Program-made: the position numbers and the translations under genes
Notes under the pieces: generated by a model
What the model saw: only the letters and a program-made list of their open reading frames with translations
The model's database searches: none
What the model was told of the DNA's origin: nothing
Part shown: positions 26,822 through 50,333 of the stretch, one piece after another
How the letters are laid out: each line of letters starts with the position of its first letter
Position numbering within the stretch: position 1 is the stretch's first letter
NCBI GenBank assembly: GCA_902771155.1
Contig: CACXVS010000031.1
Span: 1-51,422 of the forward strand
Direction of reading: 5' to 3'
Source of the DNA: an uncultured Prevotellaceae bacterium
GTDB taxonomy: Bacteria; Bacteroidota; Bacteroidia; Bacteroidales; Bacteroidaceae
DNA length: 51,422 nt

Positions 26822-26866
26822 TCCTTCAATTTTTCAATCCTTCAATTCTTCAATTCTTCAATCCTA
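26822..26866 (-). repeat. Period-8 tract (TTGAAGAA type) between porV and ispF
   Basis: In the transcribed direction the tract reads as about five 8-bp units of the form TTGAAGAA/TTGAAGGA/TTGAAAAA. The same kind of tract occurs before tsf and before the second carrier protein, always between two genes of one operon and on the sense strand. Confidence 0.8.
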
Positions 26867-28057
26867 CCTCCTAAAGAGGTCCTTGATGCCGTCCATATCG
26901 AAGGCAAGGGTAAAGCGCAACGTCTGGTCGAGAGGGTTCGAACGAGCCGTTGAAATCACATAGCCCACATCGAGCGAGAAGACACTCATGCGGAAGCCAC
27001 CACCCACAGTGAAGTACTTCATGTTACCCTTCGACTCAGCCTGATGGTGGTAACCGGCACGGATTGAGAACTGGTCGTGATAGACATACTCAGCACCCAC
27101 GCTCCACTGAATCTCCTCCAACTCCTCCTTAAAGCCTCCAGGAGCATCGCCAAAACTCTTGAAGATACCACTGATGGCACTCACATCAGCATACTCACGA
27201 CGCACACGGTCCTGATAGTCGCTATTCGACTCTCCTTCCTCCTGACGGGGCACCGTTGGCACCAACAGTTTATTCAGGTCGGCAGAGATCGAGAAACGGT
27301 TATACTCATCAACAGGCACCATCAGTGAGGTTCCAAGTCGCAGGTTGGCAGGCAGGAACTGACTCTCGTCGTCGCCATAGAAGGAAATCTTAGAACCGAT
27401 ATTCGACATGTTCATTCCGATGCCAAGCTGGCACTCCCTACTGCCCAGCATCACATAATTATTATAATACATCGCCAGGTCGGCAGCAAAGGCCGAGGCT
27501 GGCTTGGAGTCCTCGCTGTAGTCATAACGCAGGTCGCTGTAGAGCCATCGGATAGCTGCTGCCAGAGAGAACTTCTCACTGAGCATCAGCGAGTAGGCCA
27601 AGTCGATCGACATCTCGTAAGGCTTCACCGACATACCGTCGTCAGCAAATACCTCACCCAGAGAGAAATAGCGCAACGAACCCGAGATAGCCGAATAATC
27701 ACCAATACGGTAATAACCAGCCACATAGGCCAAATCGATATCGTTGACGAGCTGACGGAGCCAAGGGGTGTAGTTCAGGGCTATACCCGAACGACTGATG
27801 CAGAAAGGATACTTAGCTGGATTCCAGTACTGGGAGTTCACATCCGGATCAGTGGCCACACCCACATCACCCATACCTGCGCCTCTGGCGTCAGGGGCTA
27901 TCGTCTGCGAGATGACGGCATGTTCCACTGGGTTGAACATCGTGGTCTTGTCATCATCCTGCGCCATCAAAGACAAAGGTAAAAAGGTAAAAAGGTAAAA
28001 AGGTAAAAGCCTTCTTACCCCACTTCCTACCTGATATGCTATTTTCATTATTTCCAT
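26864..28057 (-). CDS. porV: Type IX secretion outer-membrane protein PorV
   Basis: The 397-residue barrel matches PorV/LptO: after the signal peptide comes PDARGAGMGDVGVATDPDVN and SQYWNPAKYPF, then repeated amphipathic strands ('FSLAAAIRWLYSDLRYDYSE', 'FSIRAGYHHQAESKGNMKYF') ending in FTLAFDMDGIKDLFRR. PorV carries cargo from the translocon to the PorU sortase. It is directly downstream of porU, the usual order. Its signal peptide core (LLPFYLFTFLPLSL) is encoded by four tandem 8-bp units (27971-28008), so gain or loss of one unit would shift the frame. ATG 28057 or 28048 may be used. Confidence 0.9.
   Translation of the reverse strand: MEIMKIAYQVGSGVRRLLPFYLFTFLPLSLMAQDDDKTTMFNPVEHAVISQTIAPDARGAGMGDVGVATDPDVNSQYWNPAKYPFCISRSGIALNYTPWLRQLVNDIDLAYVAGYYRIGDYSAISGSLRYFSLGEVFADDGMSVKPYEMSIDLAYSLMLSEKFSLAAAIRWLYSDLRYDYSEDSKPASAFAADLAMYYNNYVMLGSRECQLGIGMNMSNIGSKISFYGDDESQFLPANLRLGTSLMVPVDEYNRFSISADLNKLLVPTVPRQEEGESNSDYQDRVRREYADVSAISGIFKSFGDAPGGFKEELEEIQWSVGAEYVYHDQFSIRAGYHHQAESKGNMKYFTVGGGFRMSVFSLDVGYVISTARSNPLDQTLRFTLAFDMDGIKDLFRR
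27974..28008 (-). repeat. Four tandem 8-bp units inside the porV signal-peptide codons
   Basis: GGT recurs at 27978, 27986, 27994 and 28002, giving four near-identical units of TTTTTACC on the sense strand. A degenerate tract of the same period lies upstream of the start (28073-28103). Confidence 0.85.
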
Positions 28058-28072
28058 TATATATTATTTCTT

Positions 28073-28103
28073 ACTTTCTTACCTTTTTACTTTTTCACCT
28101 TTA
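28073..28103 (-). repeat. Degenerate period-8 tract in the porU-porV gap
   Basis: On the sense strand the units read roughly AAAGGTGA, AAAAGTAA, AAAGGTAA, GAAAGTAA, just before the porV start. It is related to the repeat inside the gene. Confidence 0.65.
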
Positions 28104-28120
28104 AATAACGTCTTCGCTCT

Positions 28121-31100
28121 TTAATTATTGCCTAAGATAATCAATTTGTTAGCGTAGGAGCCACTACCGCCATTGCCATTCATCTGGATGCGATAGATAT
28201 AGACACCAGTACGCAGACGACTTCCACCACTCACGTTGAGGTCCCAATCCAAAATGATGGTTCCATCAGTAGCTACGCCCTTCTCCGTTCGTTTGTAAAG
28301 CTGTCGCCCTGATGTGTCGAAGATCTCCACTACCACATCAGCCTCCGTTGTACCACGATCGTGGGTAACCACAAACGAGGTGGTGGTTGAGGCAGGATTC
28401 TTGGTACAGATCACATGGATGTCGCCATCTCCGCCACCCTTCACGACGTTGAAAGCCAGCTCAGCAGTCGATGAGTTATTCATCACGTCCCACGCTCTGA
28501 AGAGCAGTTTATGAGGACCCTCGCTAAGTTCTGGGATGGTGAAGCCCACACTACCACTACGATATTCGCCAAAGTCGAAGGTGAAGTAGTCGTTGAGGTT
28601 GTAGGTCCTTGAGAGTTCCCCATCGATAATCAGTTCCAGGTCATGACCTACACTACTGCCTGCTGCGTTGATACCACTATCGTCGTAGAGTTCTGCAGCA
28701 AAGAAGGGCGTGGGATTGACGCTACCCCCATTGACGAACGACTTCGAGTTCAGATAACAGAATATCGAAGGACCGATCGAGTCATTCTGGCTGATGGCCC
28801 CGGCATCGAGCACGAGACTGCTGTTCTCGCCATGCAAGGTCATCGTACGGTCGTTGTTCACCGCATAGAGCGTCATCAGTCCGTTGCCGTCGGCATAGCT
28901 CACATCCTTGGGCACAGCGAAGGTGAAGCGGAAGCTGCCGTTCCTGACGCTGTCCGACCCCTGATAAAGCATCTTCGTATGGTCCTTATAGGTAAAGGCC
29001 ACCTCAGAGCCTTCAGCCGAGTCGTCGTTCTGTTGGCAGACGATGGTCTCCTCTGCATCCCTGACCATCGCTGTAACAACCCCGTTGAAGGTGTTGGCAC
29101 GAGCCTGATTCTGTTCCACATGACCTTGCAAGGTCACCACCGAACCAGCCGAGAGGCTAACCGCCGATGAGGCAGGCTTACCGTTGATACTGTCGATGAC
29201 CACCGAGGGCGAAGGACAGGCCAAGTGCAGGGCCGGATCGCCCAACAGTGTGTATTGCAGTTTGTTAGGCGACGTATCGCGCCCATCATTGACCAGATCG
29301 ACCTTTGCCTGGCGCACAGCCTCACCGATGGTGAAGTCGGGGTCAAGCACATATTTGGTAAACAAGAGGTTCATTTGCTCGTTATAGGAGGCATAAACCG
29401 TTCGCGTGGTACCAAAGAAGGCCACGCCCCCACCCCGTTTGCTTAGCATCACCGTTTCGCCAATGTTCTCCTCTTGTCCGTCGAAGGGCATGATGTCGCA
29501 CGATGCGGTAATCCACAATGGCAGATAGTTTGTCGTAGAGGCCTCAAAGTCGGGCAGTTTCATCACCAGCTCATGCGACAATGCATAGGCAGCTCCATGA
29601 CCTGAGTAGTTCATCATCAGTGCCCCACTGGTCAGCTGTTGTTTAATGAGTTGCGTCACGTCAGGATAACTGTATCCCGTCGATGACGATGTGCGCTGGT
29701 AGGCGTCCCAGTATATCTTCTTGATGTCATAGCCCGGATACGTGTTTTCCACGAGGGTGGCCACCTTGTCTGCTGTGGCCATGTGGACATTGGCATTACC
29801 GTCGTCGCCCATCACGCAGATCACGTTCTGCCACGATCCTGCATATTTGTTCACTGCATAGTCAAGTGTCTTGTTCACCAGCACCTCGGCTTCCTCAGCC
29901 GACCTGGCCGGATAGCGCCCCACAGCCACGTCGGGCTTACCTAAGTAAGTATAGGTATTACCTGATTTCTTCTGGATCTCCTCTTCATCGTCGAGCAGAC
30001 AGAAGAAGTCGTCGCTCACATAGCAGTTCACATGACTGAAGGAGTTCTCGCTCTCAAAGCACAACAGGAAGTCGTCAGGGTCACATCCCGTCCAGTCGGC
30101 CCCATTCATGCGGTTATCCCAGGCTCCATCGCCAAAGAGCAACAGATAGCGGGGTATATCCTGATCAGTCTGGGCCCTATCGTAGAACATCTTCAGATAG
30201 CGACGATAGGCCGTAGCGTCAGGGGTGCCGCTCGAGAACTCGTTATACAGTTCATCGGCAGGCACTATCCTCGTGCGCAGTCCGTCGTTCTCCTCATGCC
30301 AGGTCTTGATGCGCTCAGCCTGGGCCAGCACCTGCTGATTGGTGGGGATGATAATGATCATATCCACAGGCTCGTCGGCATGATGGTCCTGGTTCATGAT
30401 GTTATACACGTATTCCGGTATAGGAAGGGCACCTTGCAGATCAGGCATTGCCATAGGCGTATCAAACCGTAGCGACAGATAGTCGAGACGCAGGTTCCCA
30501 CCCGATTTCTGGGTAATCTTCACCGTATTCTCTGCTTTGAGCATGCCCTGCATCTCATAGTCCCATACACTCTCTTCGGCCTCGGTATAGCTGTCGAGTC
30601 TTACGGTTCTGGTGATGGTGCCCACCAGCGAGTCGTTCACCTCGACGGTAGCCTCAAAACTGGCGTCACAGGTAAGGGCCACCGATAGTGTCCCCGATGT
30701 GCCTGAACCCTTCAGCTTGTAGGTCAGGGGCGTACCAATGGTGTAGAGCGTCTTGTCAAAGAGGTTCCTTCCTCCATGAAACCACGAGAAGTCGTCCACC
30801 TCGTAGAGCGTGTGATAGTCATTGGGCATCGGGTAATAGGCCGTTGCCATCTCCTCGCTGCTGATGGTCAGGGGCTCCTCGTCGTTCGACGTCAGGAAAT
30901 AATAGCCGTCATCAGAATAAGGATTACGGGTGCGCAAGGTAGCCTCAGCCGATTCCCACGTCACTGGTCCTACCGCATAGAACACACGATGACCATTCAC
31001 CATGCAGGTGGGCACCTCCTTCAGATCGTCTGTCGAGGCCAGATAGTCGCCCGTCAGCTTCTCTGGCTGCAAGGCACCACCATAGCCATACACCTTCACC

Positions 31101-31657
31101 TTATTCATATCCGAGAAACCGGCCTTCTTGATGAGGGCGTCCGACAACTGGTAGAAGCCGCTCTCCGGCACCCTGATCTTGGCCCAGGTGCCTTCACGCA
31201 GCACGGAGTGCCCGGCATAGCGCTCCACTTCACCGTCAGCCCTTGTACGAGCCTTGGCTTTCGGAGATGAATTCACCTTCAGCTTGAAACTGACCAGTTT
31301 ACGATATTTCCCGTCCCTGAACACCAGCGGCACCAGCGACACATCGAGTACACCTTGTTTCCTGGCCACACCGATCGTCTGTGTCACCATAGGCAACTCT
31401 GGCAGGGGCTCTCCGCTAATCGCCTGATAACGAGCCACATCGGCCTTGCTCATCTCAATAAACTCGGGATACTCGATGCTGACGGTATAGACGGAGTCGG
31501 CATAGCGAGGCCCCAGTTGCTTCTGCCAGGTATAGACGGGCAGTAACGAGTCGATCCTGACCTGACCAGCAGTCAAGTTCACCCACTCCTGCGCCTCAGC
31601 ATGGACACTGAAAAACAGAAGGGCACAAGCCACTATGAATCGAATTGCAGCTTTCAC
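28121..31657 (-). CDS. porU: Type IX secretion sortase PorU (C25 cysteine peptidase family)
   Basis: The 1178-residue protein has a signal peptide, an N-terminal PorU domain, a gingipain-like C25 catalytic domain (about 425-790) and a C-terminal Ig/CTD part (VVEIFDTSGRQLYKR...TGVYIYRIQM...KLIIL). The catalytic pair is visible: His687 in NYSGHGAA and Cys720 in LWITASCDIMPFDG. PorU cuts the type IX C-terminal signal and attaches cargo to anionic LPS at the cell surface. The start codon is GTG at 31657; no ATG gives a signal peptide. porV follows 63 bp later. Confidence 0.93.
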   Translation of the reverse strand: MKAAIRFIVACALLFFSVHAEAQEWVNLTAGQVRIDSLLPVYTWQKQLGPRYADSVYTVSIEYPEFIEMSKADVARYQAISGEPLPELPMVTQTIGVARKQGVLDVSLVPLVFRDGKYRKLVSFKLKVNSSPKAKARTRADGEVERYAGHSVLREGTWAKIRVPESGFYQLSDALIKKAGFSDMNKVKVYGYGGALQPEKLTGDYLASTDDLKEVPTCMVNGHRVFYAVGPVTWESAEATLRTRNPYSDDGYYFLTSNDEEPLTISSEEMATAYYPMPNDYHTLYEVDDFSWFHGGRNLFDKTLYTIGTPLTYKLKGSGTSGTLSVALTCDASFEATVEVNDSLVGTITRTVRLDSYTEAEESVWDYEMQGMLKAENTVKITQKSGGNLRLDYLSLRFDTPMAMPDLQGALPIPEYVYNIMNQDHHADEPVDMIIIIPTNQQVLAQAERIKTWHEENDGLRTRIVPADELYNEFSSGTPDATAYRRYLKMFYDRAQTDQDIPRYLLLFGDGAWDNRMNGADWTGCDPDDFLLCFESENSFSHVNCYVSDDFFCLLDDEEEIQKKSGNTYTYLGKPDVAVGRYPARSAEEAEVLVNKTLDYAVNKYAGSWQNVICVMGDDGNANVHMATADKVATLVENTYPGYDIKKIYWDAYQRTSSSTGYSYPDVTQLIKQQLTSGALMMNYSGHGAAYALSHELVMKLPDFEASTTNYLPLWITASCDIMPFDGQEENIGETVMLSKRGGGVAFFGTTRTVYASYNEQMNLLFTKYVLDPDFTIGEAVRQAKVDLVNDGRDTSPNKLQYTLLGDPALHLACPSPSVVIDSINGKPASSAVSLSAGSVVTLQGHVEQNQARANTFNGVVTAMVRDAEETIVCQQNDDSAEGSEVAFTYKDHTKMLYQGSDSVRNGSFRFTFAVPKDVSYADGNGLMTLYAVNNDRTMTLHGENSSLVLDAGAISQNDSIGPSIFCYLNSKSFVNGGSVNPTPFFAAELYDDSGINAAGSSVGHDLELIIDGELSRTYNLNDYFTFDFGEYRSGSVGFTIPELSEGPHKLLFRAWDVMNNSSTAELAFNVVKGGGDGDIHVICTKNPASTTTSFVVTHDRGTTEADVVVEIFDTSGRQLYKRTEKGVATDGTIILDWDLNVSGGSRLRTGVYIYRIQMNGNGGSGSYANKLIILGNN

Positions 31658-32823: not shown

Positions 32824-34131
32824 ATGAAGCAAGTTATTTTAAAAAAAGGATTAGTGCTGTTGGCAATGGGTTTGCTGACGGCTTGTAGCAATGGTGATGA
32901 ACAAGATTCTCTTGTCACAAAACCAGAAGCCCCCCAAATAGAGAATCCGTCAAACACCCCCACCGTTGTGGTAGCGAAGGAACGCCAAGACATCATTCTT
33001 ACTGCAGAAGGGAGCAAAATCAACGATGCTGTCAATCAGTTCTCGTTGAAGTTCTTCAAGGAGTTGTATAATCATCAGAAGAGCTCCGCAAATACGATGG
33101 TGTCACCGTTCAGCGCCCAGGTTGCTTTATCGATGGCTGCCAATGGCGCCAAAGGTCAGACCCTTGAAGAGATCCTGACGGCGATGAACTTGAAAGGCTT
33201 TGGCTTAGACGATGTCAACCTGTACAACCAAACCATCGTGAAGGCTCTGACAGAACTTGACAACACCTCGTTCGTGTCATCGGCTAACGGTATCTGGACG
33301 AAAGTCAAGTTGCTAGAATCGTACATCAACCAGATGCGTGACGTCTTTAATGCCAATGTGAAGACGACAGACTTCAGCGCGGAGGATATCAGGGCCATCA
33401 ACGATTGGGCGAAGGAGCAGACGCACGGTATGATACCTTCACTGTATGATGAGGGCGAGGATGTCGATTGTCTGGTGTTGTTAGCCAATGCTCTGTATTT
33501 TGAAGCTATTTGGGAGGATCCCTTCGACCCAGATTTCAAGGTAAAGGACAAATTCACCAATACTGACAAGAGTCAGGGAGATATCGAACTGATGAGGGAG
33601 GGAGGTTTTAGGAACTATCTGAGCTGTTCATCGTTTGACCTCTGTGAAAAGAGATACGGCAACAGCGCTTTCTCTATGGTATTCTTGCTGCCGCACAGTA
33701 ACATCTCTCTCGAAAAGAGTATCAACGACTTCTGTCAGATGGACTGGAAGGAACTGAACGCAAAACTTGCGGAGAATTACAATTTTGTAATGCTAAGCGT
33801 TCCAAAGTTCCAGATAGAGAACCAGAAGTACGACCTGATTCCGTCTCTGAAGGATATGGGCATACAGACAGCCTTCACTGGACTTGCGGATTTCAGTAAC
33901 ATGACAGGAGATATAGGTCTTTTCATTACCAAAGTAGAGCAGAAGACAGCCCTCATCCTCAATGAAAGCGGAACGAGTGCAGCTGCAACAACTATAATAG
34001 AGGAGACCGTTACCTCTAATGGAAACGAACCAGAGCCTCTTGACTTCAAACTCAACAGGCCTTTCGCCTTTATCATTAAGGAGAAGAGCACAGGGGCCAT
34101 CCTTTTCGCTGGAGCAATCAACAAACTATAA
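32824..34131 (+). CDS. Serpin-family protease inhibitor, lipoprotein
   Basis: The 435-residue protein has a lipoprotein signal (LLTACSN) and a full serpin fold: NTMVSPFSAQVALSMAANGA (helix B region), VSSANGIWTK, INDWAKEQTHGMI, VLLANALYFEAIW, and the C-terminal LNRPFAFIIKEKSTGAILFAG. The hinge of the reactive loop (GTSAAATT, from Gly383 = P15) keeps small residues, so it should inhibit by loop insertion. Counting from the hinge puts P1-P1' at Thr397-Ser398 with Val at P2, fitting elastase-like targets. It would protect the cell surface from host or rival proteases. Genes on both sides are separated by repeats, which suggests a mobile or accessory locus. Confidence 0.93.
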   Translation: MKQVILKKGLVLLAMGLLTACSNGDEQDSLVTKPEAPQIENPSNTPTVVVAKERQDIILTAEGSKINDAVNQFSLKFFKELYNHQKSSANTMVSPFSAQVALSMAANGAKGQTLEEILTAMNLKGFGLDDVNLYNQTIVKALTELDNTSFVSSANGIWTKVKLLESYINQMRDVFNANVKTTDFSAEDIRAINDWAKEQTHGMIPSLYDEGEDVDCLVLLANALYFEAIWEDPFDPDFKVKDKFTNTDKSQGDIELMREGGFRNYLSCSSFDLCEKRYGNSAFSMVFLLPHSNISLEKSINDFCQMDWKELNAKLAENYNFVMLSVPKFQIENQKYDLIPSLKDMGIQTAFTGLADFSNMTGDIGLFITKVEQKTALILNESGTSAAATTIIEETVTSNGNEPEPLDFKLNRPFAFIIKEKSTGAILFAGAINKL

Positions 34132-40967: not shown

Positions 40968-40974
40968 AACTTTA

Positions 40975-41009
40975 ATTTTTCAATTTTTCAATTCTTCAAT
41001 CCTTCAATT
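40975..41009 (-). repeat. Period-8 tract between rpsB and tsf
   Basis: On the sense strand the units read TTGAAGGA, TTGAAGAA, TTGAAAAA, TTGAAAAA and end 8 bp before the tsf ATG. Confidence 0.8.
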
Positions 41010-41870
41010 TTATTCAGCGGCGGGAGCCTCTTCCTCAGCGGGAGCGGTAGCCTCTTCTGCTACGGGAGCCTCTTCTGCAGGAGCAGCCTCCTTGCGGGGC
41101 TTGCGGGCAGCGCGCTTGGGCTTTACTTCCTCACCGTCAGCCTCGGCCTGAGCCTCAGCAGCCTTATCGTCGGCCTTCTCTGCCTTGCGCTCCTCGATAC
41201 CCTCAGAGATAGCAGCGCAGCAAGCGTTGAGGATAACCTCTACGCTGTCCTTAGCGTCGTCGTTAGCGGGAATCACGAAGTCCACATTGTTAGGATCAGA
41301 GTTGGTGTCAACGATACCGAATACGGGGATACCCAGACGGTTAGCCTCGCGAACGGCAATCTGCTCCTTCAGCACGTCAACCACGAAGAGGGCACTGGGC
41401 AGACGGGTCAGGTCGGCGATAGAACCGAGGTTCTTCTCCAACTTGGCACGCTGACGGGTCACCTGCAGCAGCTCGCGCTTTGAGAGGTTTGAATAGGTAC
41501 CGTCCTGCATCAGCTTATCGATGTTCGCCATTTTCTTTACGGCCTTACGGATAGTCGGGAAGTTGGTGAGCATACCACCAGGCCAGCGCTCAATAACATA
41601 AGGCATGTTGATGCTGGTAGCCTTCTCGGCGATCACGTCCTTTGTCTGTTTCTTAGTAGCGACGAACAGGATCTTCTTGCCACTCTTGGCAATCTGCTTC
41701 AAAGCGTCGGCAGCCTCGTCGATCTTGGCTGCGGTCTTGTGCAGGTCGATAATATGGATACCGTTACGCTCGGTATAGATGTAGGGAGCCATTGCGGGGT
41801 TCCACTTACGCTTCAGGTGGCCGAAGTGACAGCCTGCCTGCAGCAACTGGTCAAAATTTGTTCTTGCCAT
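41010..41870 (-). CDS. rpsB: 30S ribosomal protein S2
   Basis: The 286-residue protein has the S2 core (LLQAGCHFGHLKRKWNPAM, GIHIIDLHKTAAKIDEA, FVATKKQTKDVIAEKA, RWPGGMLTNFPTIRK, PVFGIVDTNSDPNNVDFVIP). After residue about 235 it carries a 50-residue Ala/Glu-rich tail with a basic patch (KPKRAARKPRKE) that is not part of the conserved core; such tails are seen in Bacteroidetes S2. It is third in the operon. Confidence 0.97.
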   Translation of the reverse strand: MARTNFDQLLQAGCHFGHLKRKWNPAMAPYIYTERNGIHIIDLHKTAAKIDEAADALKQIAKSGKKILFVATKKQTKDVIAEKATSINMPYVIERWPGGMLTNFPTIRKAVKKMANIDKLMQDGTYSNLSKRELLQVTRQRAKLEKNLGSIADLTRLPSALFVVDVLKEQIAVREANRLGIPVFGIVDTNSDPNNVDFVIPANDDAKDSVEVILNACCAAISEGIEERKAEKADDKAAEAQAEADGEEVKPKRAARKPRKEAAPAEEAPVAEEATAPAEEEAPAAE

Positions 41871-43009: not shown

Positions 43010-43258
43010 TTTCTCTTTTAATTTTACTACTAAAAAACAGTTTACTTAATTGCGCACACAAACTCACATCCGAGGTCTCGCTCGGCCCTAAGGCCGCTTG
43101 CTTCTTGCAAGAACTCCCGGCTGCAAGTCTAACGAACGCGCAGGAACCTTACGATTCCATTGCTGGACTGACGATTCACGAACCACTGCGCCCGGCCAAA
43201 GACGCCGCTATTCACACCTCAATCCACGGGGATTCTAAGTCTCTCCCCAATAATCGGA
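43010..43258 (-). promoter_or_regulatory. Long structured 5' leader of rplM (possible r-protein autoregulatory leader)
   Basis: The transcript from the promoter at 43262 runs about 245 nt before the rplM ATG without a reading frame. On the sense strand it has a CGGCC-TTAG-GGCCG tetraloop hairpin, a self-complementary TTCTTGCAAGAA, and a GCGCAG/CTGCGC stem closing a larger domain. Such leaders often bind an r-protein of the operon to repress it. I recall L13 leaders being described in Bacteroidia but cannot check the match here. Bases 43292-43372 on the far side hold nothing I can name. Confidence 0.6.
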
Positions 43259-43372: not shown

Positions 43373-43403
43373 TTGGCCGTTACATAAAAATGTTGTACTT
43401 TTG
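43373..43403 (+). promoter_or_regulatory. Promoter of the eight-gene acyl/glycan operon
   Basis: TTG (43373-43375), 20 nt, TACTTTTG (43396-43403). The ATG at 43434 follows after about 25 nt. It is divergent from the rplM promoter. Confidence 0.82.
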
Positions 43404-43433
43404 CAGCCTAAAATAAAAAGGTACGCAACACGT

Positions 43434-44948
43434 ATGCAGAAAAGTGTCATTGAATATTTGGTTCACACTGCTGCCAAGCATCCTCAGAAGACAGCAGTTC
43501 AGGATACAACAGGCAGCATCACTTTTACGGAACTTCTCCAGTCGGCTTTTGTGATAGCCGATGCCATCAGGGCTAAGGGTCTGTGGCGTTCGCCCATCGG
43601 GGTGTATATCCCCAAGGGATGCACCATGGTACAGGCGTTTGCCGGCATCAACATGAGCGGTAACTTCTATGTGCCCCTCGACACAAAGTCGCCCGATACG
43701 AGAATCAGTTCCATTCTGAACGTACTGGAGTCGGAAGCCGTCATCACAGACAAGGCCCACGAACAGCAGGTGAAAGGGATGTTTGGCAAAGCGGTCTTTG
43801 TGATGGAGGACGTGCTGGAGCATCAGCCCCGGGCAGGTGCCAATGCCGAGGACTACCTGGCCGACCAGATCGACACCGACCCCGTTTACTCCATCTTCAC
43901 CTCGGGTTCCACGGGTACACCGAAGGGGGTGGTCATTGCCCATAGAGGTGTGATTGACTATATCGACTGGGCCGTCAGCACGTTCGGCGTCACCAGTGAG
44001 GCTGTCATCGGAAACCAGGCACCCTTCTACTTCGACAACTCCACGCTCGACATCTACCTGATGTATGCCACCGGCGCCACCCTCGACATTATTCCCGATA
44101 TGCACTTCTCGTTCCCGGCCAAACTGGTCGATTACATGAACGAGCGACAGATCACGTTTGTGTTCTGGGTACCCTTTGCACTCATCAACGTGGCCAATTT
44201 CGACATCCTGAAAGACAAGAAACCACAGTATCTGAAAGATGTGCTTTTTGCAGGAGAGGTGATGCCCAACAAGCATCTGAACTACTGGCGCAAGCACCTG
44301 CCCCACTGCCGTTATGCCAATCTCTACGGCCCGACGGAGATTACCGTTGATTGCACCTTCTATGAGGTTGACAGGGAATTTGCCGACGACGAGCCGTTGC
44401 CCATCGGCATTGAATGCCGCAACAGCGACGTCCTGATTCTGGTAGATCAGCAGCGCGAGGCCGCCGTTGGGGAAGAGGGTGAGTTGTGCGTCAGAGGCTC
44501 TTCACTGGCCTTAGGCTATTACAATGACCCGGAAAAGACACAGAAAGCCTTTATCCAGAACCCGCTGAACAAGCACTACCCGGAGACCATCTACTGTACA
44601 GGCGACATCGTCTATAAGAACGAGCGCGGCGAGATTATGTACGTGGGCCGTAAGGACTCACAGATCAAGCACAACGGCTATCGCATCGAACTGGGCGAGA
44701 TTGAGAATGCTGTGCTGGCCAGTAAGATGGTGGACAACTGCTGCGCTGTCTATGATTTCAACAACAAGAAGATCGTGCTCTATTATCAGGCGCCTGAGGA
44801 ACTGAACCTGAGTGCCTTCCGTAAAGCCGTCTCCGACAAGATTCCCCGCTATATGATACCCTCAGCCTACTACCGCGAGGAGGCACTCAAGCAGAACAGC
44901 AGCGGCAAGATCGACCGTTCGTACTACAAAAAACAGATTAATGGATAA
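43434..44948 (+). CDS. AMP-forming adenylation enzyme, amino-acid (DltA/NRPS A-domain) type
   Basis: The 504-residue enzyme activates an acid with ATP and passes it to a carrier-protein thiol. The motifs are complete: P-loop FTSGSTGTPKGVVIAHRG, A4 'APFYFDNSTLD' with the Asp that holds the alpha-amine of amino acids, YGPTEITVDCTFY, YCTGDIVYKNERGEIMYVGR and the catalytic Lys in NSSGKIDRS. The overall pattern is closest to D-alanine:carrier ligase DltA. No Dlt partner is present (no DltB-type MBOAT); instead two carrier proteins, a KAS III and a reductase follow. ATG 43434 is used because an upstream TTG lies inside the -7 box. The next gene overlaps its end by 8 bp. Confidence 0.9.
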   Translation: MQKSVIEYLVHTAAKHPQKTAVQDTTGSITFTELLQSAFVIADAIRAKGLWRSPIGVYIPKGCTMVQAFAGINMSGNFYVPLDTKSPDTRISSILNVLESEAVITDKAHEQQVKGMFGKAVFVMEDVLEHQPRAGANAEDYLADQIDTDPVYSIFTSGSTGTPKGVVIAHRGVIDYIDWAVSTFGVTSEAVIGNQAPFYFDNSTLDIYLMYATGATLDIIPDMHFSFPAKLVDYMNERQITFVFWVPFALINVANFDILKDKKPQYLKDVLFAGEVMPNKHLNYWRKHLPHCRYANLYGPTEITVDCTFYEVDREFADDEPLPIGIECRNSDVLILVDQQREAAVGEEGELCVRGSSLALGYYNDPEKTQKAFIQNPLNKHYPETIYCTGDIVYKNERGEIMYVGRKDSQIKHNGYRIELGEIENAVLASKMVDNCCAVYDFNNKKIVLYYQAPEELNLSAFRKAVSDKIPRYMIPSAYYREEALKQNSSGKIDRSYYKKQING

Positions 44949-45747
44949 GGTCATCACGTCATTCGAGCAGTTGAACGGCTTGTTCGCCAAGGTCAGGGAG
45001 ACGGGGGAGAGACCTCTCACCAACTTCTTCTGGGACGAGAACAAGCACCCCTTCTGGCTGGAAGCCGGCACACTGCGCTATCAGACGACGCCTGGCTGTG
45101 TGCTGCTCACCAACGACAATGGCGAATTCCTGAACCTCTTCTATTTCGCATCAGGTGCCGACACCCTGAAAGAGGCGTTAAGTGCGACGGCTTTACAGAA
45201 GCAGACCTCGTTGGATATCGTCAGCAAGGCAGAGGCGCCCGTAGAGATGGCAGTGTTTCAGGAGCAAGGCTTCGAAAGCTATAAGCGGCTGTATCGGATG
45301 AGTCATATCGGACAGCTGCCCTTCGACCCCAGTCTGGCCAACGAGACGCCGAAGGCCGACGACAGGGAACTCGAGATCGTGAGGAACATGCTCTACACGA
45401 ACTTCGACCCCCTGAGTGAACAGATTCCAACCCTCTACGAGATCAACCAGATCAACCAGAAGGGCGGGGTGATCGTCTATAAGGAGGGTCAGGAGGTATG
45501 CGGATTCAGCATCTTCGAGGACAAGGGTCTGACCTGGTACTGGAGATACTGGTTCGTCTCAGAGCAGCACAGGAACAAGGGCATCGGCTCCAAGCTCTAC
45601 AACGGTTCCGTGAAGACCTCCCTGCAGTCGAAACGACAGATCCTGTGGGTGATCGACGATAATGAAAATGCAATCAAAAGACATACTCACTTCGGATTCC
45701 GGCAAGAGAATCTGTTTGACTATGTGCTTCTAAATAATAAATTGTGA
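44941..45747 (+). CDS. GNAT-family N-acyltransferase
   Basis: The 268-residue protein has an N-terminal half of unknown type (FEQLNGLFAKVRETGERPLT NFFWD) and a C-terminal GNAT domain (about 135-268) with the acyl-CoA pyrophosphate loop in VSEQHRNKGIGSKLYNG and the family end WVIDDNENAIKRHTHFGF. It transfers an acyl group to an amine. Translational overlap with the adenylation gene (8 bp) and 1 bp to the carrier protein gene suggest that its substrate is the amino acid activated by gene 1, perhaps while bound to the carrier. Confidence 0.82.
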   Translation: MDKVITSFEQLNGLFAKVRETGERPLTNFFWDENKHPFWLEAGTLRYQTTPGCVLLTNDNGEFLNLFYFASGADTLKEALSATALQKQTSLDIVSKAEAPVEMAVFQEQGFESYKRLYRMSHIGQLPFDPSLANETPKADDRELEIVRNMLYTNFDPLSEQIPTLYEINQINQKGGVIVYKEGQEVCGFSIFEDKGLTWYWRYWFVSEQHRNKGIGSKLYNGSVKTSLQSKRQILWVIDDNENAIKRHTHFGFRQENLFDYVLLNNKL

Positions 45748-45748
45748 T

Positions 45749-45979
45749 ATGAAAGAAAAGATTATTGAAATCCTGACTGAGCTCAGACCGGAGTTCGACT
45801 TTACTGAGGAGGTAGATTTCATCGAGGAAGGTATGCTCGACTCGTTTGATATCGTCTCACTGGTTGACGAGCTGGAGTCACATTTCGGCATTAAGATCCA
45901 AGGTATCGATGTCATCCCTGAGAATTTCTCTACACTCGATAAGATTGAGACCCTACTGAAGAAAAGCGGAGCAGCATGA
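45749..45979 (+). CDS. Acyl carrier protein, first copy
   Basis: The 76-residue acidic helical protein has the phosphopantetheine site Ser32 in EEGMLDSFDIVSLVDELE, and helix III/IV text GIDVIPENFSTLDKIETLLK. The DSFD form (rather than DSLD) and the position next to a DltA-like enzyme resemble DltC-type carriers. The start of the next gene overlaps its stop by 4 bp. Confidence 0.92.
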   Translation: MKEKIIEILTELRPEFDFTEEVDFIEEGMLDSFDIVSLVDELESHFGIKIQGIDVIPENFSTLDKIETLLKKSGAA

Positions 45980-47040
45980 ACCTGAAGTTTAAGAACAAGC
46001 GGATCGCAGGCATCCTGACCATCCTCCCCAAGCGTGTCGTCACCTTCGAGGAGGAGATGGGAAACTATAATTTCCCTGAGAAGAAATCCCTTCGTCTGAA
46101 AAAGATCATGGGCTATAACACCCACCGCGTAGCAGCCGAAGGACAGTGCTCGTCTGACTTCTGCATCCACGGATTGCAGTACCTCTTCGACAACGGTCTG
46201 CTCCAGAAGGACGAGATCGACGCCCTGCTCTTCGTGTCGCAGTCGCCCGACTACTTCATGCCTCCCACCAGCAACCTCATCCAAGGTCATTTCGGTCTGA
46301 AGCACGACACAATCTGTATGGACATCAACCAAGGATGTGCCGGCTTCGAACTCGGACTGATGCAGGCTTTCATGCTGCTCGAACAAGAGCATGTCAACAA
46401 GGTGGTGCTGATGAATGCCGACGTGCTCAGTCCGAAGGTGTCGATCCACGACCGCAACAGCAAACCCCTCATCGGCGATGCTGCTGCCATCACCATCGTG
46501 GAGAAGACCGACGACCAAGAGGAAATCCACATGGCCGTGAAGATGGACGGCACCGGTGCCAAGGCCCTGATCATCCCCGCAGGCGGTTTCCGCATGCCCT
46601 GCAGTGAAGAGACGGCCATCGAGCACGAAGACGAGGCCGGCAACTTCCGCTCGCTCAACAATCTGGTGATGCAGGGCGACGACGTGTTCAACTTCGTTCA
46701 GCGCGAGGTGCCCCCCATGATCCACGAACTGTTGGAACGCGCTGGTATGACGGCTGACGATATCGACTGGTATATGTTCCACCAGCCCAACAAGTTCATG
46801 CTCAACAAACTGGCCGACGCCATCGGAGTGCCCTACGAGAAGATGCCCAGCAACATCGTCGAGAACTTCGGCAATGCCAGTGGCGTCACCGTTCCCACCT
46901 GTATCTCGTACAACCTGGGAGAGAAACTCGAACAACAGTCCTATCAGATGTGTCTGGCAGGCTTCGGTGTCGGACTCACCTGGGCCTCGATCATCATGAA
47001 GGTGGGCAATCTGACGTTTAATAGAATTATTGAATATTGA
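45976..47040 (+). CDS. 3-ketoacyl-ACP synthase III family enzyme
   Basis: The 354-residue thiolase-fold protein has the KAS III triad: Cys121 (DINQGCAGFELG), His269 (WYMFHQPNKFML) and Asn300 (ENFGNASGVTVPTC). KAS III proteins join an acyl-CoA primer to malonyl-ACP, or, in some natural-product and O-antigen loci, act as acyltransferases. It is 4 bp into the first ACP gene. It is not the housekeeping fabH by context, since it sits in a glycan-type operon with two dedicated carriers. Confidence 0.92.
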   Translation: MNLKFKNKRIAGILTILPKRVVTFEEEMGNYNFPEKKSLRLKKIMGYNTHRVAAEGQCSSDFCIHGLQYLFDNGLLQKDEIDALLFVSQSPDYFMPPTSNLIQGHFGLKHDTICMDINQGCAGFELGLMQAFMLLEQEHVNKVVLMNADVLSPKVSIHDRNSKPLIGDAAAITIVEKTDDQEEIHMAVKMDGTGAKALIIPAGGFRMPCSEETAIEHEDEAGNFRSLNNLVMQGDDVFNFVQREVPPMIHELLERAGMTADDIDWYMFHQPNKFMLNKLADAIGVPYEKMPSNIVENFGNASGVTVPTCISYNLGEKLEQQSYQMCLAGFGVGLTWASIIMKVGNLTFNRIIEY

Positions 47041-47093
47041 AGAATTGAAGAATTGAAAAATTGAAGAATTGAAAGATTGAAGAATTGAAGAAT
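47041..47093 (+). repeat. Period-8 tract (TTGAAGAA)n before the second ACP
   Basis: About seven units of the form TTGAAGAA, TTGAAAAA, TTGAAAGA fill the whole gap between the KAS III stop and the ATG at 47094. A TTG in the tract keeps an open frame but is not the likely start. Confidence 0.88.
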
Positions 47094-47303
47094 ATGGAAG
47101 AATTAAAAAGCAAACTGGCTGAGGTCCTGGAGGAAGAGACCGTCAACGATACCGACGTGCTCGAGGATTTCGAGTACTGGGACTCCCTGGCCATCCTCGG
47201 CATCATCTCGATGGTGTCGGAGAACTACAAGAAGACCTTCAAGGCCGCTGATATCAGGGCTTGCAAAACCGTTGGTGATCTCTGCAAACTGATTCTGGGC
47301 TGA
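47094..47303 (+). CDS. Acyl carrier protein, second copy
   Basis: The 69-residue protein has the phosphopantetheine Ser31 in EYWDSLAILGIISMV and helix text VSENYKKTFKAADIRACKTV GDLCKLIL. It differs strongly from the first carrier, so the two probably serve different steps. The stop overlaps the SDR start by one base (TGATG). Confidence 0.88.
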   Translation: MEELKSKLAEVLEEETVNDTDVLEDFEYWDSLAILGIISMVSENYKKTFKAADIRACKTVGDLCKLILG

Positions 47304-48034
47304 TGGATACCTATACACTTATCACAGGCGCCACCTCTGGCATCGGACTCGATCTGGCCGTCCGCCTTTCAGGCGAGCGCAACCTGATCCTCGTCGGACG
47401 GAATGAAGCCCGACTCGATGAACTCATCAATCAGACGGGCGGGTCAAACAAGGTCTTGAAACTCGTCATCGACCTCGATGCCGACAGGCGTCAGGCGGCC
47501 TCTCGTCTTACAGAGCTCATCCAGAGCGAGGGCCTGCAGATAGAAGCCCTGGTGCACTGTGCCGGAACCAGTAAGGTGATGCCCCTCCGTCAGGCCGATA
47601 CCGACAGCATCGACACCATCTTCAACGTCAACATCCTCTCCGCCATGGAGCTGATACGCCCCCTGCTGAAAAAAGAGAACAAGGGATCGCTGAAGAACAT
47701 CGTGCTCATCTCCTCGCTGGCCTCCATCCGGGGCGAGAAGGGTAATGCCGTCTATGCCGCGTCGAAAGGGGCCCTGAACGCCCTCACCATCTCGCTGGCC
47801 AAGGAACTGGCACCAAAGGTACGCGTCAACAGCATCTCACCCGGTACGGTGGAGACACCCATGACACAGGACTTCCTGAAGACAGAGTCGGGAGTGGCCC
47901 ACCTGCAGACCTATCCCCTGGGTGTTGGCCACCCCGAGGATATTACGAACCTGGCGTGTTTCCTGCTGTCCGACGAAGCCCGTTGGATTACCGGCCAGAA
48001 CATCGTCATCGACGGTGGACGCTCAACTTATTAA
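47303..48034 (+). CDS. Short-chain dehydrogenase/reductase, FabG-like
   Basis: The 243-residue SDR has the cofactor loop GATSGIG (residues 9-15), HCAGTS, the catalytic Ser-Tyr-Lys (LISSLAS, Tyr151, Lys155 in AVYAASKGAL) and the SPGTVETPMTQDF and ITGQNIVIDGG segments. It should reduce a 3-ketoacyl carrier thioester to a 3-hydroxy form using NAD(P)H, the step after KAS III. The ATG overlaps the ACP stop. Confidence 0.92.
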   Translation: MDTYTLITGATSGIGLDLAVRLSGERNLILVGRNEARLDELINQTGGSNKVLKLVIDLDADRRQAASRLTELIQSEGLQIEALVHCAGTSKVMPLRQADTDSIDTIFNVNILSAMELIRPLLKKENKGSLKNIVLISSLASIRGEKGNAVYAASKGALNALTISLAKELAPKVRVNSISPGTVETPMTQDFLKTESGVAHLQTYPLGVGHPEDITNLACFLLSDEARWITGQNIVIDGGRSTY

Positions 48035-48044
48035 TCGCTCAAGC

Positions 48045-48824
48045 ATGTCAGAATACGTCAGCTATCAGATGATTCCCTCGGTGATAGGGATTGAGAAAGG
48101 CGATGTCGTCCTCCTCACGTCCGACATTACCGACCTGTTCCTGCAATGCCAGGAACACGGTGAGCACTTCGACCCGAACGTGCTGCTGGACAAGTTCCAG
48201 GAGGCTGTCGGGACAGAGGGCACGCTCCTGATCCCGACCTACAACTGGGGATTCTGTCAGGGTAAGACCTTCGACTACAGGAAGACCCCCAGCAAGACGG
48301 GAGCCATCGGCAATGCCGCCCTTCGGAGGAAGGACTTCGTGCGCACCAAGCATCCCATCTACTCTTTTGCTGTATGGGGGAAGGATACCGACTATCTCTG
48401 TGCCCTGGAGAATGTGGAGTCGTTTGGAGCCGACTCGCCCTTCGCCTATCTAGAGAAGGTCAACGCCAAGAATGTGTTCATCGGCAGCGCATCCATGCGC
48501 AACAGCTTCACCTATATCCACTATATAGAACAAAAGACGGGCGCCTCCTACCGTTTCTCCAAGACCTTCAGAAGTCACTATGTCGATCAGGACGGTCAGG
48601 AGTCGGAAAAGGCTTACTCCATGTATGTCAGGGATCTTGACCTCGACGTGGTCTGCACGCCCGATCCGTTTGTCGATGAGCTCTATGCCAACCAGGCCAT
48701 CCGCAGCGGACAGATCGGCAGCGTTCCCTATGAAGTCATCCGCTTTGGCGAGGTCACCCCATTCATCATCAAGGATATCCTGCACAACCGCAGTCGGAAA
48801 CTGTGCAGGTATAAAGGACAATAA
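48045..48824 (+). CDS. AAC(3)-family N-acyltransferase (aminoglycoside acetyltransferase fold)
   Basis: The 259-residue protein matches the antibiotic_NAT family: GDVVLLTSDITDLFL, TLLIPTYNWGFCQGKTFDYR, TGAIGNAALRRKDFVRTKHP, YSFAVWGKD, and TYIHYIEQKTGASYRF with the catalytic His. In resistance genes this fold acetylates aminoglycosides; many homologues sit in polysaccharide loci and acylate amino sugars. Here, 10 bp after the reductase and 9 bp before a capsule-type gene, the second role is far more likely. ATG 48045 follows the SDR stop. Confidence 0.88.
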   Translation: MSEYVSYQMIPSVIGIEKGDVVLLTSDITDLFLQCQEHGEHFDPNVLLDKFQEAVGTEGTLLIPTYNWGFCQGKTFDYRKTPSKTGAIGNAALRRKDFVRTKHPIYSFAVWGKDTDYLCALENVESFGADSPFAYLEKVNAKNVFIGSASMRNSFTYIHYIEQKTGASYRFSKTFRSHYVDQDGQESEKAYSMYVRDLDLDVVCTPDPFVDELYANQAIRSGQIGSVPYEVIRFGEVTPFIIKDILHNRSRKLCRYKGQ

Positions 48825-48833
48825 CGGCTAATC

Positions 48834-50333
48834 ATGAGTAAAAGACTATATTATAGTTCCAGTGCCCTTGCCGCCCCACATATCGGCGTCATTATCGACG
48901 ATATTCTTGACGGTAGGCAGAAAGGCGACGATATCTACTGGGCATACTGCCATTGTGGACTCTCAACCTGTTTTATGAATCTCGACGGCTACCCCTGCAT
49001 CTGTCAGTTCTGTCATCGCATGTACCGCGAGTACCGGCGGGCCTACGGGGCCGGTGTCCACATGATTCCCATCAAGAGCGAGGATGTAAAGCACCGTGAA
49101 CAGCAGTTCGACTTCCGCGAGGCCGACGAACTCGAAGATTTCACCTATCGCGACGTCAAGGTGGGCAGGTCGGTCCTCTCCCTATATTATACGACGACGC
49201 GCGACCTCGACCTGGCCCGTTTCCACGAGTTCCACACGTATGCCATTCCACTGGTCAACGAACTCTGCAACCTGGTGGATAAAGCCTACGAACTGATAGA
49301 CCAGATCAAGCCCGACGTGGTCATCGTTCATAACGGACGCCTCTATGAGAACCGCCTCTTCTTCGACATCGCCCAAAAGTTGGGCGTCAAGTTCAAGGCT
49401 GTCGAGACCGTAGGCGGTCATGGTGAGCCCTATGCGAAGATGAGCTATCCCGACGCCCTGCCACATAATATCGAGAAGTGGAACCAGCTGGCCATCACCA
49501 CCTGGGAGAAGAGCGACGAACCCGAGGAAGAGAAGATCCGCATCGGCTCATCGTTCTTCGAGCGCCGTCGCAAAGGCGAGGTGGTGGTCGATGTCAAGGC
49601 CTACGTCACCGAACAGAAGAAAGGTCTGTTGCCCGAGGGTTTCGACCCCAGCCAGCGTAATATCGTGCTCTTCACCTCGTCACAAGACGAGCTGGTGGCT
49701 CTCGGCGACGACTGGAGCGTCAACCGCGTGTTCCCCAGCCAGTGCGAGGCCATCGGCTATATCCTCAACCACTCCGCGGGCGACGTACATTATTATATAA
49801 GGATACACCCCAACCTGAAGGGCATCAACCACCGCGACCATCTGGGTCTCTATCAGTATGACGCTCTTCCCAACGTCACCGTCATCCCGCCCGAGAGCAA
49901 GGTGAGCAGCTACGACCTGATGGATGCCTGTGAGAAGGTGGTCACGTTCGGTTCCACCACGGGCCTCGAAGCCTGCTACTGGGGCAAGCCCTCACTCCTA
50001 ATAGGCCATTGTGGGTTTGAGCGCTGCGGTGCACTTTATCATATCCAGAAGTTAGAGGATGTCATGCCCTCCGTCGAGGGCAACCTTCCCCCCAAGCCCC
50101 GCATGGCCGCCATCAGGTTTGCCTATTTCCTGCTCGACCGGAAATACAAGGTCGATCAGACGCATATCGACATCGACGTGCAGATCAAGCGCCACCTCAA
50201 GTGGGACTTCACCTACGCCTCCTACTTCAAACTGCATGGCTCCACGCTCCTCTATCAGCTGGCCTTCTTCTGGCACTGCATCTTCCGCCGCCACTTCGCC
50301 ACCCCCAAGTTCCAGTTCCCCTGGAAGCTATAA
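48834..50333 (+). CDS. Capsule-polysaccharide-type glycosyltransferase-like protein with N-terminal Cys cluster
   Basis: The 499-residue protein has no membrane segment and resembles capsule synthesis proteins of GT-B layout: the second half shows VLFTSSQDELVALGDDW, YYIRIHPNLKGINHRDHLGL and VVTFGSTTGLEACYWGKPSLL, the donor-site pattern of KpsC/KpsS and related Kdo-type enzymes. The N-terminal part contains CHCGLSTC and CICQFC within residues 39-63, five to six cysteines that could hold a metal. It would add or elongate the sugar modified by the upstream genes. It is last in the operon; no terminator is obvious directly after it. Confidence 0.78.
   Translation: MSKRLYYSSSALAAPHIGVIIDDILDGRQKGDDIYWAYCHCGLSTCFMNLDGYPCICQFCHRMYREYRRAYGAGVHMIPIKSEDVKHREQQFDFREADELEDFTYRDVKVGRSVLSLYYTTTRDLDLARFHEFHTYAIPLVNELCNLVDKAYELIDQIKPDVVIVHNGRLYENRLFFDIAQKLGVKFKAVETVGGHGEPYAKMSYPDALPHNIEKWNQLAITTWEKSDEPEEEKIRIGSSFFERRRKGEVVVDVKAYVTEQKKGLLPEGFDPSQRNIVLFTSSQDELVALGDDWSVNRVFPSQCEAIGYILNHSAGDVHYYIRIHPNLKGINHRDHLGLYQYDALPNVTVIPPESKVSSYDLMDACEKVVTFGSTTGLEACYWGKPSLLIGHCGFERCGALYHIQKLEDVMPSVEGNLPPKPRMAAIRFAYFLLDRKYKVDQTHIDIDVQIKRHLKWDFTYASYFKLHGSTLLYQLAFFWHCIFRRHFATPKFQFPWKL

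What the first reader, a model, noticed from the sequence alone, without database searches (positions are those of the whole stretch)
43373..50333. Compact operon for building an unusual carrier-bound acyl or aminoacyl group and placing it on a surface glycan
Seen: eight genes with overlaps or gaps of at most about 50 bp under one promoter: DltA-like adenylation enzyme, GNAT, ACP, KAS III (intact triad), second ACP, SDR, AAC(3)-fold acyltransferase, capsule-type protein. Established: related sets (KAS III, ACP, reductase, N-acyltransferase) make hydroxyacyl groups on amino sugars such as viosamine and anthrose. Inference: this set activates an amino acid, may acylate or extend it on two carriers, reduces it, and transfers it to an amino sugar. 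No sugar-nucleotide, flippase or polymerase genes are present, so it acts on a glycan made elsewhere. The mix of amino-acid activation with KAS III and two different carriers is not a pathway I know.
Basis: partly seen in the sequence, partly recalled or inferred. Interest (0 to 1): 0.82.

Follow-up and report, generated by a model that had tools for sequence, protein, structure and literature searches.

The report
Amino-acid-derived glycan decoration operon
A rare eight-gene operon in a rumen-type Prevotella, with relatives in other bacteria, appears to turn an amino acid into an unusual modified acyl group on small carrier proteins and to attach it to an amino sugar of the cell surface; no product is known for it yet.

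Summary
The operon is real: eight intact, tightly packed genes behind a Bacteroides-type promoter, under purifying selection. Its core (A domain, N-acylating enzyme, ACP1, KAS III, ACP2, SDR, acyltransferase) recurs in other Bacteroidales, a Paenibacillus plasmid and, shorter, in Planctomycetes. ACP1 and KAS overlap or lie within 12 bp in 30 of 32 loci. Outside Prevotella, 15 of 19 Bacteroidales-type loci carry amino-sugar genes nearby, against 1 of 20 random regions; three have a VioA-like aminotransferase. The slot between A and ACP1 mostly holds a tandem GNAT, but in one genome a formyltransferase, with KAS, ACP2 and SDR kept. I therefore favour: A loads an amino acid on ACP1, the slot enzyme caps its nitrogen, KAS extends it with malonyl-ACP2, SDR reduces it, and the AAC(3)-fold enzyme moves the N-acyl beta-hydroxy-gamma-amino acyl group to an amino sugar. 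E. coli O123 makes N-(3-hydroxybutyryl)-alanyl-Qui4N, isomeric with my prediction if the amino acid is alanine, with unrelated genes. A new variant of a known kind.

The parts
43373..43403 (+). Bacteroides-type promoter (TTGG, then TACTTTTG)
   Evidence: read by eye; consensus recalled; not tested
43434..44948 (+). A: stand-alone amino-acid adenylation enzyme (DltA-like, not DltA)
   Evidence: PF00501 209.6 bits; TIGR01733 338.4 bits over cut-off 317.4; DltA equivalog 296.8 under 559.85; pocket code DNLFLALVDK
44941..45747 (+). GNAT: tandem-GNAT N-acyltransferase, proposed N-cap of the ACP1-bound amino acid
   Evidence: PF00583 41.5 bits; model pLDDT 93.4; PDB hits include VipF, mycothiol synthase, bovine glycine N-acyltransferase
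45749..45979 (+). ACP1: carrier with weak DltC likeness, proposed aminoacyl carrier
   Evidence: PF00550 25.2 bits; DltC model 37.6 bits under cut-off 68; Ser32 conserved 33 of 33
45976..47040 (+). KAS: beta-ketoacyl-ACP synthase III-like condensing enzyme
   Evidence: PF08541/PF08545; triad Cys121, His269, Asn300 conserved; FabH models not reached
47036..47104 (+). 8-bp imperfect tandem repeat (ATTGAAGA, 8.4 copies) between KAS and ACP2
47094..47303 (+). ACP2: second carrier, proposed malonyl/extended-acyl carrier
   Evidence: PF00550 29.4 bits; Ser conserved 30 of 30
47303..48034 (+). SDR: proposed beta-keto reductase
   Evidence: PF13561 153.1 bits; Tyr and Lys 26 of 26, Ser 25 of 26
48045..48824 (+). 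AAC(3)-fold acyltransferase, proposed transfer to the sugar amine
   Evidence: PF02522 100.6 bits; resistance equivalog 36.2 under cut-off 270; His159/Glu162 in 11 of 12 sequences, the twelfth has a gap there
48834..50333 (+). CAP: GT-B-like glycosyltransferase of the capsule-synthesis family, Cys-rich N terminus
   Evidence: PF05159 21.2 bits over 20; BFO_1060 family 38.6 under 200; model pLDDT 91.6; KpsC and WbbB among PDB hits, low TM-scores

Best explanation
A discrete, amino-acid-initiated, type II hybrid pathway for decorating a surface amino sugar. (1) A activates an amino acid and loads it on ACP1. (2) The GNAT acylates the amino group on ACP1, which would stop the later gamma-amino beta-keto thioester from cyclising. 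(3) KAS condenses this starter with malonyl-ACP2. (4) SDR reduces the beta-keto group. (5) The AAC(3)-fold enzyme moves the N-acyl beta-hydroxy-gamma-amino acyl group from ACP2 to the 3- or 4-amino group of a dideoxyhexose. (6) The capsule-type glycosyltransferase helps to put that sugar into a surface glycan. Shown: enzyme classes, intact sites, gene order, context of relatives. Inferred: all substrates and the order of steps. Predicted substituent: amino-acid residue + C4H6O2 (86.037 Da) if the cap is acetyl.
For: Families and intact sites. ACP1 stop and KAS start overlap by 4 or 1 bp in 24 of 32 loci and lie within 12 bp in 30 of 32, over several phyla; for comparison, such overlaps are 0 of 28 for KAS-ACP2, 10 of 26 for ACP2-SDR, 5 of 23 for A-GNAT, 0 of 23 for GNAT-ACP1. 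Four planctomycete loci keep A-ACP1-KAS-ACP2; in three a small gene follows, in two of which it was tested and matched GNAT families. In one genome (G064: L037, L045) a formyltransferase (PF00551, E 1.9e-33) fills the GNAT slot between A and ACP1 while KAS, ACP2 and two SDRs remain, an arrangement like the formyltransferase-A-PCP of LgrA (recalled). In L018 GNAT and ACP1 are read in one frame. Amino-sugar context 15 of 19 against 1 of 20; without the two loci that supplied those references 13 of 17, Fisher p 1.4e-5. A VioA-like gene stands beside the module in L008, L018 and L044 (100, 83 and 86% to that of L008); the L008 protein is 52-60% identical to eight E. coli aminotransferases, four of them annotated VioA (a ninth is frameshifted).
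Against: Nothing biochemical. The pocket code matches no specificity that I recall, and codes differ among clades (DNLF[FL]ALVDK; DI[YF]FWA..LDK; planctomycetes DVQCT[L]T[IV]AK), so one product for all is unlikely. Co-variation of ACP1 with KAS exceeds that of ACP2 with KAS over all common loci (0.79 against 0.40) but not within Bacteroidales (0.44 against 0.43), so it does not assign the starter to ACP1. ACP2-SDR overlaps too (10 of 26), as the rival route would also predict. The formyltransferase case is one genome. The GNAT-ACP1 joint frame may be a lost stop in a MAG. Four of the 19 loci (L010, L011, L016, L026) lack amino-sugar matches, and the Prevotella loci have none beside the operon (0 of 4). 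KAS could take acyl-CoA, with ACP1 as malonyl carrier.
Confidence: 0.5

Rival explanations
1. Convergent two-carrier route: A loads an amino acid on ACP1; KAS, ACP2 and SDR separately make 3-hydroxybutyryl-ACP2; the GNAT joins this acyl to the amino group on ACP1; AAC(3) moves the N-(3-hydroxybutyryl)-aminoacyl group to the amino sugar.
For: Uses all seven enzymes and both carriers. The end group is known on Qui4N: N-[(S)-3-hydroxybutyryl]-D-alanyl in E. coli O123 (PMC10609480, passages) and N-[(R)-3-hydroxybutyryl]-L-alanyl in Proteus vulgaris O4 (title in a reference list). ACP2 and SDR overlap by 4 or 1 bp in 10 of 26 loci.
Against: Where a formyltransferase replaces the GNAT, KAS, ACP2 and SDR stay, which leaves them without an acceptor. 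KAS overlaps ACP1 by 4 or 1 bp in 24 of 32 loci but ACP2 in 0 of 28, though it lies within 12 bp of ACP2 in 19 of 28. E. coli O123 makes this group with WbqC, a hypothetical protein, GNAT and MaoC genes in its cluster, and none of the eight window proteins matches there.
Confidence: 0.22
2. Two separate decorations: A, ACP1 and GNAT make an (N-acetyl) aminoacyl group, and KAS, ACP2, SDR and AAC(3) a 3-hydroxyacyl group, on different positions or sugars.
For: N-acetyl-aminoacyl and 3-hydroxybutyryl groups are both known on amino sugars (PMC10609480, PMC3210612, passages); two N-acyltransferases are present.
Against: A and KAS occur together in 31 of 34 rows, and ACP1 and KAS, one from each half, are the pair with the most start-stop overlaps of the five pairs counted.
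Confidence: 0.13
3. A diffusible small molecule (NRPS/PKS-like metabolite), not a glycan decoration; the glycosyltransferase glycosylates it.
For: Stand-alone A and ACP with a protected amino starter are known in macrolactam pathways (PMC11284099, passages). The four planctomycete module loci show no glycan genes in the held DNA apart from one weak PglD match in L023.
Against: Amino-sugar genes beside the module in 15 of 19 Bacteroidales-type loci against 1 of 20 random regions; KpsC among the structural matches of CAP.
Confidence: 0.1

Closest known systems
Flavobacterium psychrophilum O-polysaccharide wfpC-G module (3,5-dihydroxyhexanoyl on Qui2NAc4N)
   Same: Two ketoacyl-ACP synthases, a dedicated ACP, a ketoreductase and an N-acyltransferase predicted to make a hydroxyacyl group for a 4-amino sugar in a Bacteroidota surface glycan (PMC6519341, abstract and passages)
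   Different: In the passages read no amino-acid adenylation enzyme, second aminoacyl carrier or GNAT is named; its acyltransferase is PglD-like; sequence homology not tested
E. coli O123/O186 O-antigen cluster (N-[(S)-3-hydroxybutyryl]-D-alanyl-Qui4N)
   Same: Aminoacyl plus hydroxyacyl substituent on Qui4N; aminotransferase related to that beside the module in L008 (52%)
   Different: Beside the aminotransferase stand WbqC, a hypothetical protein, GNAT and MaoC; no A, ACP, KAS or SDR in the stretches read (16.7 kb each); none of the eight window proteins matches at E 1e-3
E. coli O121 O-antigen cluster (N-acetylglycyl-Qui4N)
   Same: N-acetylated amino acid on Qui4N, GNAT present (structure listed for Shigella dysenteriae 7 in PMC10609480; that O121 shares it is recalled)
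   Different: WbqC and GNAT; no A or ACP
Linear gramicidin synthetase LgrA initiation module (formyltransferase-A-PCP)
   Same: N-capping of an amino acid on a carrier (mechanism recalled). LgrA heads the PDB list for A and also matches the formyltransferase of L037
   Different: Multidomain NRPS; the window has discrete proteins, a GNAT cap and a KAS. The LgrA rank is partly due to its two A domains (best one 189.6 bits), and the L037 enzyme matches methionyl-tRNA and sugar formyltransferases better (97 against 53 bits), so this is an analogy of layout
Vicenistatin-type beta-aminoacyl-ACP starter loading
   Same: Stand-alone A and ACP, amino group protected before polyketide extension (PMC11284099, passages)
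   Different: Protection by a second A enzyme, extension on a modular PKS, product a macrolactam
Campylobacter jejuni flagellar locus Cj1297-Cj1308
   Same: Recalled to hold an amino-acid-activating enzyme, FabH2-like KAS, several ACPs and an AAC(3)-like gene
   Different: Not compared here; the one passage read (PMC3283744) only names Cj1303 and Cj1307 as PCR anchors

Membership tests
DltA/DltABCD D-alanylation | DltA equivalog score | tested here: not met
   TIGR01734 296.8 bits, cut-off 559.85
DltA/DltABCD D-alanylation | DltB (MBOAT) and DltD partners in the operon | tested here: not met
   no such domain among the eight proteins
Amino-acid adenylation domain | TIGR01733 cut-off; Asp235 and Lys517 equivalents | tested here: met
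   338.4 over 317.4; both residues 31 of 31; GrsA numbering recalled
FabH (housekeeping KAS III) | FabH model score | tested here: not met
   TIGR00747 157.5 under 292.1; best model NF009519 217.2 under 436
KAS III superfamily | both Pfam domains and Cys-His-Asn triad | tested here: met
Aminoglycoside 3-N-acetyltransferase (resistance) | AAC(3) equivalog score | tested here: not met
   NF033082 36.2 under 270
Antibiotic_NAT (AAC(3)) fold family | PF02522 gathering score | tested here: met
   100.6 over 25
BFO_1060 family glycosyltransferase | NF046086 cut-off | tested here: not met
   38.6 under 200
E. coli O121/O123-type aminoacyl-Qui4N genes | WbqC-type gene | tested here: not met
   no WbqC match in the window at E 1e-3; of the module loci only L012 has one
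Carrier-borne hydroxyacyl module for amino sugars (wfp type) | KAS, ACP, ketoreductase and N-acyltransferase in a surface-glycan setting | tested here: met
   the setting is shown for relatives, not for the window itself
Carrier-borne hydroxyacyl module for amino sugars (wfp type) | sequence homology to wfpC-G | not tested
   F. psychrophilum sequences were not fetched
Carrier-borne pathway | both ACPs phosphopantetheinylated | not testable with these tools
   serines conserved 33 of 33 and 30 of 30
C. jejuni Cj1297-Cj1308 locus | homologous gene set | not tested
   recalled only

The most novel reading that the evidence does not exclude
A family of discrete, amino-acid-initiated hybrid NRPS/type II PKS pathways devoted to glycans: an amino acid is capped on its nitrogen while on a carrier (acetyl or formyl by exchange of one gene), extended by a dedicated KAS and reduced to a statine-like acyl group on a surface amino sugar, a class of substituent that I do not know from any bacterial glycan.
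Probability: 0.4. Interest if true: 0.78.

Novelty: new variant of a known kind. Interest (0 to 1): 0.62.

Why it matters
Exotic N-acyl groups shape the antigenicity of many surface glycans. If true, this module shows that bacteria can build them with an exchangeable, amino-acid-primed carrier pathway, and its gene content would help to predict the substituents of uncharacterised Bacteroidales glycans. It would also offer small stand-alone enzymes for making gamma-amino-beta-hydroxy acyl groups and attaching them to sugars.

Tried and rejected
D-alanylation (Dlt) system: A and ACP1 resemble DltA/DltC, but the equivalogs fail and no DltB/DltD is present. Aminoglycoside resistance: equivalog fails. 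Same pathway as E. coli O121/O123: none of the eight window proteins matches those clusters. Co-variation as proof that ACP1 feeds KAS: the signal vanishes within Bacteroidales, so not used. A His at AAC position 103 that I first took for catalytic is kept in only 5 of 12. A DNA search of E. coli genomes with ACP1-KAS found nothing. Literature: ten searches showed no described pathway of this make-up in their listings; the library holds open-licence papers only and listings were capped. In one search the three gamma-amino-beta-hydroxy terms had no occurrence in the eight papers listed, of 861 that held at least 2 of the 6 terms. Plasmid search: 35 records, all below 60% identity; of the 20 listed the Paenibacillus one (54%) was closest, the others 29-35%. 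The rumen-Prevotella origin is inferred from relatives; no own genome was held.

Rows dropped: L029-L041, which repeat or are short versions of other loci, and the two E. coli fabH loci were left out. L027 had no KAS1 and drops out; L018 had no separate ACP1 there. In one search the Prevotella loci were counted apart (four of them: L002, L003, L004, L019), and L001, L013, L020-L025, L027, L028 and L048 were not tested; the references came from L005, L006, L008 and L012, and the 13 of 17 count leaves out L006 and L008, which supplied the amino-sugar references. The 20 random regions come from four module-bearing genomes, 13 of them from one (G001). One search listed 120 of 265 homologues of CAP, of which 50 were aligned; one search gave 37 for GNAT, of which 32 were aligned; one search listed 120 of 4587 for KAS, of which 13 were aligned.


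Full report
Observation. The window holds the eight genes as described, 43434-50333 on the + strand, with overlaps of 8, 4 and 1 bp and gaps of 1, 53, 10 and 9 bp. A Bacteroides-type promoter, read by eye, stands 5' of the first gene, divergent from the rplM-rpsI operon and its L13 leader. Each protein matches a Pfam family above the gathering score. No own genome is held. Close relatives of KAS with a name are from Prevotella (89-91%), and homologous operons sit at the same place beside rplM in L002, L003, L013 and L019, so the source is a Prevotella-type organism.

Selection and sites. Against L002, L003 and L004 dN/dS of the genes other than GNAT, where present, is 0.03-0.15; the GNAT of L002 is a diverged version (39% identity, 0.26). 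Against L001 it is 0.04-0.10 where computable; against L019 most dS values are saturated. Many dS values are near or above 1, so the ratios are rough. The KAS triad (34 of 34, 34 of 34, 32 of 32), the carrier serines (33 of 33, 30 of 30), SDR Tyr/Lys (26 of 26; Ser 25 of 26) and the A-domain Asp/Lys (31 of 31) are conserved. AAC His159/Glu162 are present in 11 of 12, the twelfth having a gap there.

Distribution. The KAS subfamily (E <= 1e-70) occurs in 7 of 295 genomes of the order, 3 of 249 of the genus (one at only 42%) and 1 of 395 of the phylum, each count including the centre genome: a rare accessory trait. A scan of species genomes gave 27 loci, to which a Paenibacillus plasmid and six longer stretches were added. 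In the 34 rows with KAS1 (33 loci and the window) A is present in 31; of the three without, L004 and L049 are near contig ends and L026 lacks it.

The module. The common order is A - N-acylation slot - ACP1 - KAS - ACP2 - SDR (- SDR or AAC), in 11 loci with a metallo-beta-lactamase-fold gene (Pfam tested in L007). Some loci add a second KAS and SDR. The slot holds the tandem GNAT in 18 rows (window included), a diverged relative in seven loci (four tested, no Pfam match), a formyltransferase in one genome; in the other rows none was called. ACP1 and KAS overlap by 4 or 1 bp in 24 of 32 loci with both called and lie within 12 bp in 30 of 32; the exceptions are L014, with a nitroreductase-family gene between, and L025. 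The same count for other neighbours: KAS-ACP2 0 of 28 (within 12 bp 19 of 28), ACP2-SDR 10 of 26 (22 of 26), A-GNAT 5 of 23 (19 of 23), GNAT-ACP1 0 of 23 (11 of 23). All are close, as in any operon, but ACP1-KAS is the tightest. Four planctomycete loci keep A-ACP1-KAS-ACP2.

What the parts say. A passes the amino-acid adenylation model and fails DltA. Its pocket code is DNLFLALVDK; close relatives are identical or differ at one position, a second clade has DI[YF]FWA..LDK, planctomycetes DVQCTLT[IV]AK, so substrates probably differ among clades; I cannot name the amino acid. The GNAT model (pLDDT 93.4) is a tandem GNAT whose PDB neighbours include mycothiol synthase and glycine N-acyltransferase, at TM-scores of about 0.5-0.65. 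CAP is predicted with high confidence; KpsC and WbbB are among its PDB hits at low TM-scores, which supports a GT-B-like fold but no specificity.

Acceptor. In 15 of 19 non-Prevotella Bacteroidales-type loci at least one amino-sugar gene (aminotransferase, PglD/NeuD or FdtA match) lies in the held DNA, against 1 of 20 random 19-kb regions drawn from four module-bearing genomes, 13 of them from G001. Leaving out L006 and L008, which supplied these references, it is 13 of 17 (Fisher p 1.4e-5). Several matches are only 25-30% identical. L008 has rmlA, C, D, B, a flippase and a VioA-like aminotransferase directly before A. L006 has FdtA-type genes, so the amine may sit at C3 or C4. The four Prevotella loci tested have no such neighbours; in ne3005 (G001) an 80% homologue of the L008 aminotransferase lies in a separate cluster, while G002 and G497 have only 32-33% matches. 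Twenty further ORFs of the window were scanned: no sugar-nucleotide, flippase or polymerase gene was recognised, though a GT2 and a GT4 lie at 21896-24051; the remaining ORFs were not scanned.

Order of steps. If the GNAT joined the KAS product to the amino acid, replacing it by a formyltransferase would leave KAS, ACP2 and SDR without use; yet they stay (L045). This one case, the ACP1-KAS coupling and the joint GNAT-ACP1 frame of L018, which may be a lost stop, favour capping on ACP1 and then extension. Co-variation does not decide it: ACP1-KAS 0.79 against ACP2-KAS 0.40 over all common loci, 0.44 against 0.43 within Bacteroidales. The two routes give isomers, so mass alone cannot tell them apart (own arithmetic).

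Known pathways. PMC10609480 (passages) and PMC3210612 (passages) list aminoacyl and hydroxyacyl-aminoacyl groups on Qui4N and Qui3N. The E. coli O121 and O123/O186 clusters contain WbqC, GNAT and, for O123, a hypothetical protein and MaoC, and no annotated A, ACP, KAS or SDR of this kind in the stretches read; none of the eight window proteins matches the nine E. coli loci at E 1e-3. The nearest described system in kind is the F. psychrophilum wfp set (PMC6519341, abstract and passages). Aeromonas and enterobacterial flagellar islands with ACP, reductase and AMP-dependent synthetase or CoA ligase are described (PMC7874193, PMC4875605, passages), with LuxC/LuxE and, in the passages read, no KAS III.

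The control was added at that point; it bears out that ACP1-KAS is the tightest pair, and it removed a claim of mine that KAS is not close to ACP2. The LgrA likeness was toned down after looking at the scores again.

Verdict. New variant of a known kind.

Noticed in passing
window 26816-26865, 40974-41011, 47036-47104: Three 8-bp TTGAAGAA tandem arrays between genes; at the third place the L002 and L003 loci have only about 10 bp. Possible slippage-prone spacers.
   Followed up: partly
window 26867-31657, - strand: PorV and a C25-type (PorU-like) peptidase, parts of the type IX secretion system, which in relatives attaches LPS to secreted proteins (function recalled).
   Followed up: no
window 43173-43248, - strand: L13-Bacteroidia ribosomal leader RNA directly upstream of the divergent operon.
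   Followed up: no
L014 7970-8986: A nitroreductase-family gene sits between ACP1 and KAS, suggesting a redox step on the ACP1-bound group in that variant.
   Followed up: partly
L012 2240-3909: WbqC and a homologue of the E. coli O123 hypothetical protein (28%) stand in the same cluster as the A/ACP/KAS module.
   Followed up: partly
L007 12479-13114 and counterparts in L009, L012, L015, L017, L028, L044-L047, L049: A metallo-beta-lactamase-fold gene accompanies the module in 11 loci but is absent from the window operon; role unknown.
   Followed up: partly
L003, L004, L013, L019: In Prevotella variants a membrane O-acyltransferase (PF01757, tested in L019) lies on the opposite strand upstream of ACP1; L003, L013 and L019 also carry a second KAS and SDR between A and it.
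   Followed up: partly
window 32824-34131: A serpin gene.
   Followed up: no
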